Origin: an uncultured Bacilli bacterium
GTDB lineage: Bacteria; Bacillota_I; Bacilli_A; RF39; UBA660
DNA length: 32,609 bases
Reading direction: 5' to 3'
Assembly (NCBI GenBank): GCA_944329385.1
Contig: CALVIE010000007.1
Span: 1-32,609, forward strand
Below are positions 1 to 32,609 of this stretch, piece by piece (the stretch's first letter is position 1; the number at the start of each line of letters is the position of its first letter). The position numbers and the translations under genes were made by a program. The notes beneath the pieces are model-generated. The model made no database searches, was not told the DNA's origin, and saw nothing but the letters and a program-made list of their open reading frames with translations.

Positions 1-2
1 AA

Positions 3-38
3 ATGGAAGAAATAAAAAAAGAGAAAGAAAAAAACTGA
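3..38 (+). CDS. Possible C-terminal fragment of a gene entering from the left
   Basis: The frame starting at base 3 reads a short charged peptide rich in Glu and Lys (EEIKKEKEKN) and ends in TGA at 36-38. That composition is common for the tail of a coiled-coil or cytosolic protein, but only about 11 codons are visible and the local sequence is purine-rich by chance too. The stop lies 38 bases before the left arm of the large inverted repeat. No function can be given. Confidence 0.2.
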   Translation: MEEIKKEKEKN

Positions 39-75
39 GTAAGGTTATATATAGAGTGTAACTTTATTTAGCAAG

Positions 76-167
76 AGTTCGGAAAATACCCAAGCCATCA
101 ACCAACACGGCAATTTAAAATACCCCTAGAGGTCCTCTAGGGTTTCGTTTGCGTTGTAGTGCCACGC
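76..167 (+). repeat. Left arm of the 92-bp inverted repeat
   Basis: Identical in reverse complement to 751-842. Identity stops abruptly at both ends: the flanks beyond 76 and 842 do not match, and neither do the bases just inside. I see no obvious target-site duplication next to the two outer ends. Confidence 0.95.
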
Positions 168-750
168 GTGTTCTTGTTTTTCCTTAATTATCATTAATTA
201 TATAAATCAGAAAATTAAGGAAAAATTTTGAACACGATTTGTATTGAATTTTCCAAAAATATTTTCTATATATTTTAATAATGATTTTTTTGGAAAATTA
301 AAAGTTTAAGTTTTTTCATATAAATAAAAAAAAGAGAAACTTAAACTTTTCAATACAAATAAAACTTTACAACTAGTGAAAAATTATAGGTTTAACACTA
401 ATTTGAAGTGCGGTAATAAAAATGCTTTTTTATTTTATAAAATAAATAATGATTTGCATTTTTATTTTGTCGCACTTTATTAGTGTTTATGTAATTATAA
501 TATACAGCTTATATAATTATTTTTGCACTTTTTCCTTATAATTTAAAAAGAGAAAGTGCAAATTGTAATTAGATTATAATAATTCAATTTTTCATAGAGG
601 CTGTAATGAAATAATAAATAAAATAATAACGTCTATCATTACAGCCTCAGCAAGTTTATTAATTACATAAAAAACTTAATAGTTGGTAAATTTTAATTAC
701 TCAAATGTTATAAATAATTAATAAAATAAACTTGCACTAGTTTCAAGTTT

Positions 751-842
751 GCGTGGCACTACAACGCAAACGAAACCCTAGAGGACCTCTAGGGGTATTT
801 TAAATTGCCGTGTTGGTTGATGGCTTGGGTATTTTCCGAACT
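751..842 (-). repeat. Right arm of the 92-bp inverted repeat
   Basis: Exact reverse complement of 76-167, including the internal 19-bp palindrome (about 776-794). It ends nine bases before the oligo-A run that forms the terminator of the neighbouring minus-strand gene. Confidence 0.95.
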
Positions 843-871
843 AGTATATCAAAAAAAGCTAATAATATTAA
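843..871 (-). promoter_or_regulatory. Candidate extended -10 promoter firing into the inverted-repeat element
   Basis: On the minus strand a TGATATACT (extended -10, TATACT at 843-848) stands 17 bases after TTAATA (866-871, four of six consensus positions). A start about seven bases downstream would fall near 836, on the G pair at the beginning of the right arm, so a transcript would run through the whole folded element. The site overlaps the terminator of the upstream gene. The -35 match is weak. Confidence 0.4.
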
Positions 872-879
872 ATATTAGC
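851..879 (-). terminator. Rho-independent terminator of the 875-1678 gene
   Basis: On the minus strand GCTAATA (from 879) pairs with TATTAGC (to 858) around an eight-base loop and is followed by seven T residues (857-851). The stem includes the TAA stop codon of the gene. Confidence 0.8.
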
Positions 880-1678
880 CATTTTGAGTATTATGAACAT
901 CACAATCTTGTAATAATTTAAACTTAGAATCTTTTAATCCATAAATTCGGTAACAACTATCAAAAGTCGGAACATCAATTATTTCGTTAGCCACAATAAC
1001 TTCATATTTCCCATCACTCATCATATCTAAAGAATCAATCATTGTAAATGAACTTAAACCTTCTTTACTTTCAACAACTTCAACTTTACCATTATCAACA
1101 ATAAATAAATATGCGATCATATCATAATCAGTAACTTCGTAAGAAAAATTAGTAATAGTATATAAAGTTTCCTCTTTTCCATCACCATCATAATCAATAT
1201 CCAGTTTTTTTAAGGAATTTCTATAACTCTGTAAAGCTTCATTATTATCTGTCTGCACCACTTTTTTAATATAAACATCATCTGAATCATCATAACCTTG
1301 AATTCTATTTGCACTAGGTTTAATATCAAGATTATCAGTATATGCAATTCTAAAATCATCAAATTCATATTCATTATAATCATCATCAAAAAAATACCAT
1401 TTATTAGAATTATATTGAATTTTCACGTCTTCAACCTTGTTATCACCATTATAAACCGTAAAATTAAAATTACTTAAATCAGGTACATCTCCTAACTGTT
1501 CAAAATCACCATTAACTTTTTGATAAATTAAAGAATCACCAACTATTAAATAACTATCAGCATTACCATCATGATTCCCTTTAATACTCAAAAAAGCAAC
1601 CACAATATATAATACTAAAATCACAATTAAAACTATAATGTAAACTTTGTTTTTTCTTAATTCTTCTTTTATATTCAC
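875..1678 (-). CDS. Hypothetical single-span membrane protein with FG-GAP/VCBS-like exterior domain
   Basis: A 267-residue protein of unknown role. It has a short charged N-terminus, one hydrophobic helix at about residues 13-32, and an exported acidic domain. A DYDGDGKEE segment near residue 165 resembles the Asp-rich calcium loop of FG-GAP/VCBS beta-propeller repeats, which suggests a calcium-binding surface domain; that is inference. The start is GTG at 1678, because the ATG one base upstream is followed at once by TGA in its own frame; AGGTGAG lies eight bases before the GTG. The gene is monocistronic, with its own promoter (1700-1728) and terminator (851-879), and diverges from the 1789-2337 gene. 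Confidence 0.75.
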   Translation of the reverse strand: MNIKEELRKNKVYIIVLIVILVLYIVVAFLSIKGNHDGNADSYLIVGDSLIYQKVNGDFEQLGDVPDLSNFNFTVYNGDNKVEDVKIQYNSNKWYFFDDDYNEYEFDDFRIAYTDNLDIKPSANRIQGYDDSDDVYIKKVVQTDNNEALQSYRNSLKKLDIDYDGDGKEETLYTITNFSYEVTDYDMIAYLFIVDNGKVEVVESKEGLSSFTMIDSLDMMSDGKYEVIVANEIIDVPTFDSCYRIYGLKDSKFKLLQDCDVHNTQNG

Positions 1679-32113: not shown

Positions 32114-32134
32114 AAAGGATAAATTAAATTATCC
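32105..32134 (-). terminator. Terminator of the repeat-protein gene
   Basis: On the minus strand GGATAA, loop, TTATCC, then TTTTTATTTTT. The stop TAA of the gene is inside the stem. Confidence 0.75.
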
Positions 32135-32609
32135 CATTAAATCAAATATAAGTGGCAATGCAAAAATAAATACAAGCAATAAAACGAATAAAATTATTAA
32201 AAAATTCTTAGTAGCCTTTTTATCTTTTATTAATTCAATATTTTCATCTTCTTTTTTTTGAGCCACCACAGTTTCTGGAGTCACTGGTATAGTTGGTGCT
32301 ACTCCAGGGATTGTTGCATTTACTTCTCCCATATTAACTGAAGCATCTGCTGTTGGTGCTGGATTCACATTTGTATTTACTTCTCCCATATTAACTGAAG
32401 TATCTGCTGTTGGTGCTGGATTCACATTTGTATTTACTTCTCCCATATTAACTGAAGTATCTGCTGTTGGTGCTGGATTCACATTTGTATTTACTTCTCC
32501 CATATTAACTGAAGCATCTGCTGTTGGTGCAAGATTCACATTTGTATTTACTTCTCCCATATTAACTGAAGCATCTGCTGTTGGTGCAGGATTCACATTT
32601 GTATTTACT
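32129..32609 (-). CDS. Tail-anchored protein with 20-residue tandem repeats (5' end outside window)
   Basis: The visible portion is the C-terminal part; the reading frame stays open to the window edge, so the true start is outside. At least five copies of a 20-residue unit (PTADASVNMGEV-NTNVN-x-AP, only Ala/Thr, Asn and one Leu varying) precede a Thr/Pro/Val linker, a Lys/Glu-rich segment (EDENIELIKDKKATKN) and a final helix (about 20 residues, ending FDLMG). The long repeats in DNA are 60 bp. The topology points to a C-terminal anchor. No family is recognised; the repeat suggests an outside stalk or a low-complexity cytosolic tail. Confidence 0.8.
   Translation of the reverse strand, partial: VNTNVNPAPTADASVNMGEVNTNVNLAPTADASVNMGEVNTNVNPAPTADTSVNMGEVNTNVNPAPTADTSVNMGEVNTNVNPAPTADASVNMGEVNATIPGVAPTIPVTPETVVAQKKEDENIELIKDKKATKNFLIILFVLLLVFIFALPLIFDLMG
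32275..32609. repeat. 60-bp tandem repeat within the gene
   Basis: The unit containing CATTTGTATTTACTTCTCCC recurs with period 60, at least five times, and continues past the window end. Only a few bases differ between copies, so unequal exchange or slippage is expected to vary copy number. Confidence 0.85.

What the first reader, a model, noticed from the sequence alone, without database searches (positions are those of the whole stretch)
76..842. A 767-nt non-coding element that folds on itself from end to end
Seen directly: a 92/92 perfect inverted repeat closes 583 bases that resolve into at least nine helices packed end to end. Helix A (168-235), three-way junction B (237-360) and the closing arm (362-378 with 735-750) meet the outer helix with linkers of zero or one base. 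Hairpins C, D, E and F fill the rest. Such packing is hard to explain by AT-rich chance, and there is no ORF. Simple terminal-repeat transposons need no internal junctions. Options: a large structured RNA of unknown class, a single-stranded DNA element, or a non-autonomous mobile element with RNA-like architecture.
Basis: partly seen in the sequence, partly recalled or inferred. Interest (0 to 1): 0.85.

Follow-up and report, generated by a model that had tools for sequence, protein, structure and literature searches.

The report
Self-folding mobile DNA in gut bacteria
This is a small gene-less stretch of jumping DNA, found in a few related gut bacteria, whose whole length is built from matching inverted repeats that the cell seems to keep identical at the DNA level, so it looks like a giant folded RNA but probably is not one.

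Summary
In detail: a 92/92 perfect inverted repeat closes 583 nt that fold far beyond chance. It is not unique to the window. Six full-length copies and many partial ones lie at different places in about eight genomes of one genus of uncultured Bacilli. None was found elsewhere. Fifteen helices are conserved between copies, 19 base pairs having changed on both sides (0 of 500 shuffles). Two facts speak against RNA function. G·U pairs are as rare as A·C mismatches (7 vs 13 of 943; a small tRNA control has 10% G·U), and the arms are 88-100% complementary within a copy but mostly 50-77% identical between copies. That is the signature of DNA-level palindrome repair by template switching. The element lacks genes, many copies sit just after a promoter -10 box behind a terminator, and in two genomes a copy interrupts the same T-box leader that is intact in others. 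Ends are used as IS605/TnpB-like left ends in chimeras, and IS110 elements repeatedly abut them; an IS110 right end abuts the window copy. Best reading: a large, modular, non-autonomous palindromic mobile element (MITE/foldback kind), closest in style to pneumococcal BOX. The mobilising enzyme is unproven. New variant of a known kind; interest moderate.

The parts
1..75 (+). 5' flank: probable right end (RE) of an IS110-family element; possible end of its recombinase gene (frame ..MEEIKKEKEKN*, stop at 37-39); RE terminus ..TTTATTTAGCAAG
   Evidence: local alignment to the RE of an intact IS110 (L137) scores 57 against a maximum of 54 in 300 shuffles; terminal AGCAAGAG shared by the IS110 copies of this group in the genus. 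The contig starts inside this flank.
76..167 (+). left arm of the perfect 92-nt inverted repeat, starting AGTTCGG; nt 76-77 are also the AG that follows the IS110 RE
124..142 (.). palindromic hairpin inside the left arm (CCCTAGAGGTCCTCTAGGG); stem sequence differs between copies but stays palindromic
168..235 (+). helix A (168-173/230-235 and 176-189/213-226)
237..360 (+). three-way junction B: 237-246/351-360, hairpins 247-259/287-299 and 300-313/337-350; L032 lacks the second hairpin and L028 the first (modular)
362..377 (+). closing helix 5' side: AAACTT (362-367 with 745-750) and AACTAGT (371-377 with 736-742); includes the most conserved linker AAACTTTACAACTA
378..593 (+). inner domain: 378-385/586-593, 395-402/479-486, 406-411/472-477, 415-425/456-466, hairpin 523-534/550-561
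597..648 (+). hairpin GAGGCTGTAATGA/TCATTACAGCCTC; replaced by an unrelated short hairpin in L034
650..735 (+). helix GCAAGTTTATT/AATAAACTTGC
736..750 (+). closing helix 3' side
751..842 (+). right arm of the inverted repeat, ending CCGAACT; palindrome 776-794
843..851 (-). host extended -10 promoter box (minus strand TGATATACT) immediately outside the right end; the native site in G033 reads ATGATATAAT at the same place
852..880 (-). T-run and terminator-like hairpin of the host gene 875-1678(-), behind which the promoter and then the element lie
   Evidence: sequence; orthologous arrangement in L231

Best explanation
A large, modular, non-autonomous mobile DNA element (palindromic MITE or foldback kind). 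SHOWN: it has no gene, occurs in several genomic places, has defined ends (AGTT..AACT) and, where the native site is known, sits exactly at a boundary in host sequence. Its arms and inner helices stay Watson-Crick paired while changing between copies. INFERRED: the pairing is kept at the DNA level, by template switching between inverted-repeat arms and possibly by selection for folding of a single-stranded or cruciform form. INFERRED, less sure: it moves in trans by an IS200/IS605-type system, its ends serving as left ends, because partial copies pair this end with a TnpB-element right end at the same kind of target (TATATAAG or TATACTAG, no target duplication seen). IS110 elements later insert at its AG|TT end, as IS110s are known to do at REP palindromes.
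For: Copies: 22 of 44 genus genomes give BLAST matches, but convincing copies lie in about 8 genomes. Conserved fold: 144 pairs, 91.9% of cells paired, 19 pairs changed on both sides against 10.2 in shuffles (0/500 reach it), at most 5 when the partner is slid. DNA-level signature: 911 WC, 7 GU, 13 AC, 12 other; tRNA control 7 GU and 0 AC in 72 pairs. Arms within copy 87.9-100%, between copies 50-77% (98% for one pair); interiors 84-95% between copies, one pair identical. Interior found in both orientations relative to host and IS110 end, as template switching predicts (PMC8604942). Site: in G011 the T-box leader of deoC reads GAAATAAG|TTAATAAC(element), in relatives GAAATAAGGTGGTACC; G033 shares the insertion. 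Window right flank: native G033 site is terminator, TGATATAAT, gene. -10-like hexamer next to 8 of 15 ends against 7% background, p 3e-6. Chimeras with TnpB right end: L029, L035, L037, L038, probably L040. A TnpB element sits at the same position as the L032 copy: GTGTACTAG|.
Against: No full-length copy was seen with native host DNA on both sides and a matched empty site, so its own far junction and any target duplication are unknown. No transposase shares the arms; Y1 transposase genes are found in only 5 of 44 genus genomes and not in the window's incomplete genome. Four of six full copies touch an IS110 right end and one an IS110 left end, which fits IS110 mobilisation too. The chimeras could be deletions between neighbouring elements. 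The helix and slide statistics use only five distinct sequences. The -10 background includes coding DNA. Empty-site comparisons of the three partial copies do not align cleanly at the junction.
Confidence: 0.6

Rival explanations
1. The element is part of, or is moved by, IS110: its AGTT end is used as an IS110 terminus with core AG, and together with an IS110 right end it bounds composite elements carrying passenger genes.
For: IS110 RE (AGCAAG-AG) directly abuts the element in window, L026, L031 and L033, from two divergent IS110 lineages (58% protein identity); L034 abuts an IS110 left end with the presumed bridge-RNA region. In G011 a 6,115-bp insertion in the T-box has the element at one end and an IS110 RE at the other, with AG at both borders.
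Against: The bases after the core at the element end (TTCGG, TTAGG, TTAATAAC) resemble IS110 target sites of the genus (TTATACT, TTTTATT), not the IS110 left end (GTTTG). L032 lies in a genome with no IS110 of this group. IS110s are known to insert into REP palindromes (PMC11208160), so adjacency can be secondary.
Confidence: 0.22
2. A genus-specific large structured RNA gene, transcribed from the host promoter at its edge, with the arms as a long closing duplex.
For: Fold and compensatory changes; -10 boxes at its edges reading inward; very conserved linker AAACTTTACAACTA.
Against: G-U 0.7% and no excess over A-C; minus strand folds about as well; no Rfam match; arms with no mismatch or G-U at all in three of six copies; dispersed, truncated and chimeric copies; absent from most genomes of the genus.
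Confidence: 0.1
3. A regulatory or insulating insertion domesticated by the host: a double-sided hairpin that captures or blocks the promoter it sits behind.
For: Position between -10 box and the gene in the native order of G033 and inside a T-box leader.
Against: Different genes at each site and no conserved location apart from the shared T-box site; presence or absence varies between related species.
Confidence: 0.05
4. Assembly or amplification artefact.
For: Several copies lie near contig ends, including the window copy.
Against: Independent assemblies and a mid-contig copy; arms carry conserved element sequence; the native host leader is split at the element edge in two genomes.
Confidence: 0.01

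Closest known systems
Pneumococcal BOX elements (boxA-boxB(n)-boxC; PMC3049150)
   Same: Interspersed, structured, no gene, modular inner hairpins that can be absent, terminal repeats paired with each other in the fold, one case joined to T-box leaders, up to 637 bp
   Different: No sequence relation was tested; this element has much longer near-perfect arms, a multi-branched interior of at least nine helices, and few copies per genome
Bacterial MITEs generally
   Same: Short, gene-free, inverted terminal repeats, dispersed, AT-rich interior
   Different: No parent transposase with the same terminal repeats found; no target duplication shown; arms differ between copies yet match within a copy
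Palindrome-associated elements of the IS200/IS605 family (PATEs; known to me from memory, not read here)
   Same: Palindromic ends; ends found with a TnpB-type right end at the same target motif
   Different: This has the same end inverted at both sides, 583 nt of folded interior, and no Y1 transposase was found in the window's genome
IS110/IS1111 elements with bridge RNA (PMC11208160)
   Same: IS110 sequence is adjacent in five of six full copies; shared AG at the junction
   Different: The element lacks recombinase and any recognisable bridge RNA; its end resembles IS110 targets, not IS110 ends
Large structured bacterial RNAs (OLE, GOLLD, HEARO, ROOL)
   Same: Size and branched fold
   Different: No Rfam match; no RNA-type G-U pattern; both strands fold alike

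Membership tests
MITE / foldback element | gene-free with terminal inverted repeats | tested here: met
   92/92 arms, longest stop-free frame 51 codons
MITE / foldback element | multiple dispersed copies with different flanks | tested here: met
MITE / foldback element | presence/absence at orthologous sites | tested here: met
   T-box site occupied in G011 and G033, uninterrupted in L208, L209, L210 and L212; partial copies
MITE / foldback element | target-site duplication | tested here: inconclusive
   no full copy with two native flanks; AG at both borders of the G011 insertion
MITE / foldback element | parent transposase with the same terminal repeats | tested here: not met
   no transposase gene found between these ends in the genus
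IS200/IS605-derived non-autonomous element | IS605-type left end with fixed target motif | tested here: inconclusive
   same TATATAAG/TATACTAG motif as TnpB elements
IS200/IS605-derived non-autonomous element | IS605-type right end at the other terminus | tested here: inconclusive
   present in partial copies L029, L035, L037, L038 and probably L040; absent in full copies
IS200/IS605-derived non-autonomous element | Y1 transposase acts on the ends | not testable with these tools
   needs experiment; Y1 gene found in 5 of 44 genus genomes
IS110-derived non-autonomous element | IS110 left and right ends at the termini | tested here: not met
   element ends differ from IS110 LE and RE; the RE lies outside the element
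Large structured ncRNA | match to a known RNA family | tested here: not met
Large structured ncRNA | RNA-type covariation (G-U tolerated, A-C not) | tested here: not met
   7 GU vs 13 AC
Large structured ncRNA | transcript | not testable with these tools
   no expression data
BOX elements | boxA/boxB/boxC sequence modules | not tested
   compared by description only (PMC3049150)

The most novel reading that the evidence does not exclude
A mobile element of a new kind that moves as a fully folded single strand: its 583-nt multi-branched fold is the recognition architecture for a recombinase that targets open promoter -10 boxes, and the long perfect arms are re-made each time by copying one arm from the other.
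Probability: 0.12. Interest if true: 0.85.

Novelty: new variant of a known kind. Interest (0 to 1): 0.5.

Why it matters
It suggests that strong compensatory 'covariation' in bacterial intergenic DNA can arise without RNA function: the missing G·U excess separates palindrome repair from RNA selection. That is a practical test for structured-RNA searches. It also points to insertion immediately downstream of promoter -10 boxes in small AT-rich gut Bacilli genomes, and to a meeting point of IS110 (bridge RNA) and TnpB (omega RNA) systems on one element.

Tried and rejected
Rfam at permissive threshold: only chance matches. Phage and plasmid collections: none. Viral contigs: two patterns with no hit; a third gave four contigs sharing only a 20-21-nt match. 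Genus-external homologues: a family-wide BLAST gave many short weak AT-rich matches, judged chance, and a helix-A covariance model found nothing outside the genus in 291 genomes. Group I/II intron: no Rfam support; the truncation pattern suggested target-primed insertion but the retained end is not of group II type. T-box or bridge RNA as the element itself: no similarity seen. The idea that terminator hairpins are the target was dropped when the native G033 site showed the promoter -10 box between terminator and element. L062's TnpB insertion could not serve as a clean empty-site test because its right flank lies in another gene.

Full report
OBSERVATION. The repeat and the fold are as described. 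Arms 76-167 and 751-842 match over 92 of 92 bases. The interior alone folds 14 standard deviations below shuffles as RNA, almost as well on the other strand (z -13.0) and as DNA (z -12.0). Interior G+C is 19%, arms 48%, window 30%, and no stop-free frame exceeds 51 codons.

COPIES. The window lies in an incomplete genome of 1.35 Mb (99 contigs, 81% complete) with a second copy at C27. In 44 genomes of the genus, named in public records as MAGs of uncultured Bacilli, convincing copies or large parts are in G000, G009, G011, G012, G014, G022, G026 and G031. Full-length copies: window, L026 (G031), L031 (G011), L033 (G000), L032 (G014), L034 (G026). A covariance model of helix A found no match in other genera of the family. 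Phages, plasmids and viral contigs have none.

STRUCTURE. The same architecture is found in the copies: closing arms, helix A, three-way junction B, closing helix AAACTT..AAGTTT, an inner domain and two or three further hairpins; L031 and L033 are predicted to fold differently in part of the 3' half. Modules come and go: L032 lacks the second B hairpin, L028 the first, and L034 has an unrelated hairpin at 597-648. On an alignment of five distinct full interiors, 19 of 144 pairs have a change on both sides, and no shuffle reaches this. In a hand-registered helix table, pairs are 911 Watson-Crick, 7 G·U, 13 A·C and 12 other. A structured RNA should tolerate G·U and avoid A·C; six tRNAs from the fetched loci give 10% G·U and no A·C (small control). 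The element shows neither strand preference (p 0.26) nor G·U enrichment. Arms are 100, 100, 100, 98.4, 89.8 and 87.9% identical within copies, but between copies only 50-77% except L031/L033, while interiors are 84-95% identical between copies, L031 and L033 being identical apart from one gap. Fast-changing arms that remain complementary point to one arm being copied from the other. Template switching between inverted-repeat arms does exactly this and also inverts the spacer (PMC8604942, studied in yeast). The interior is indeed found in both orientations relative to host and IS110 end: window and L026 against L031 and L033. This mechanism is inferred, not observed.

INSERTION SITES. In G011 the T-box leader upstream of deoC is split. 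It reads GAAATAAG, then the element (AG|TTAATAAC..), while L208, L209, L210 and L212 have GAAATAAGGTGGTACC uninterrupted; T-box identity is supported at E about 1e-17, slightly under Rfam's gathering score. The missing half, GTGGTACC, follows 6,115 bp later, right after an IS110 right end. G033 carries the element at the same site up to its contig end (L216). At the window's right flank the native order in G033 is: homologous gene end, T-run, TGATATAAT, next gene; the window has TGATATACT|AGTTCGG. So the element sits just behind a host -10 box. Eight of 15 ends have a TATAAT-like hexamer there against 7% background (background includes coding DNA).

PARTNERS. Two IS groups meet the element. 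(i) TnpB elements of the IS605 superfamily are abundant in the genus and start after the same TATATAAG/TATACTAG motif. A TnpB element in G023 and the L032 copy in G014 start at the same position of the same host sequence. Partial copies L029, L035, L037, L038 and probably L040 run from the element's end to a TnpB-element right end, with different internal junctions. (ii) IS110 recombinase genes with a SymE-like ORF; the noncoding left end is presumed to hold the bridge RNA. Their right ends (..AGCAAG-AG) abut the element in window, L026, L031 and L033, and an IS110 left end abuts L034. Since IS110s insert into REP palindromes (PMC11208160), and the element end looks like their targets (AG|TT), I read this as insertion at the foot of the palindrome, but co-mobilisation is not excluded.

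INTERPRETATION. Best: a non-autonomous palindromic mobile element with an unusually elaborate interior, whose pairing is maintained at the DNA level. Shown: copies, ends, occupied and uninterrupted sites, conserved pairing, homogenised arms. Inferred: template switching; single-strand or cruciform form; IS605-type mobilisation (weaker). Not supported: a large RNA of unknown class.

NOVELTY. Structured, modular MITEs are known (BOX, PMC3049150). The length of the near-perfect arms, the arm turnover and the many-helix interior make this a new variant of that kind. No known family was assigned, because no parent transposase with these ends was found.

Noticed in passing
L031/L151 (G011:C1:99007-105121): 6.1-kb insertion in a deoC T-box leader: element, perfect 139-nt inverted copy of the IS110 C-term/right end, ABC transporter, HTH gene, complete IS110.
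   Followed up: partly
L153 and L034: IS110 elements of this genus sit next to a small ribbon-helix-helix-like gene and a surface-protein-like gene (DUF6273 or DUF285); IS110 carries a SymE-like ORF between its noncoding left end and the recombinase.
   Followed up: partly
genus, e.g. G020, G017, G022: TnpB genes and fragments are very abundant (up to 22 matches in a genome) although Y1 transposases are in only 5 of 44 genomes.
   Followed up: no
window 2385-24692: Secretion or conjugation-like locus: TraG-type ATPase, T2SSE/TadA-like ATPase, NlpC/P60 protein, pilin-like proteins.
   Followed up: no
window 32129-32596 (-): ORF made largely of near-identical repeats (NPAPTADASVNMGEVNTNV) followed by a membrane segment.
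   Followed up: no
L030, L039: Solo ends: only about 25-30 nt of the arm next to a TATACTAG or TGTACTAG motif, beside a tRNA-Cys gene (L030) and a leucine-rich-repeat-like gene fragment (L039).
   Followed up: partly
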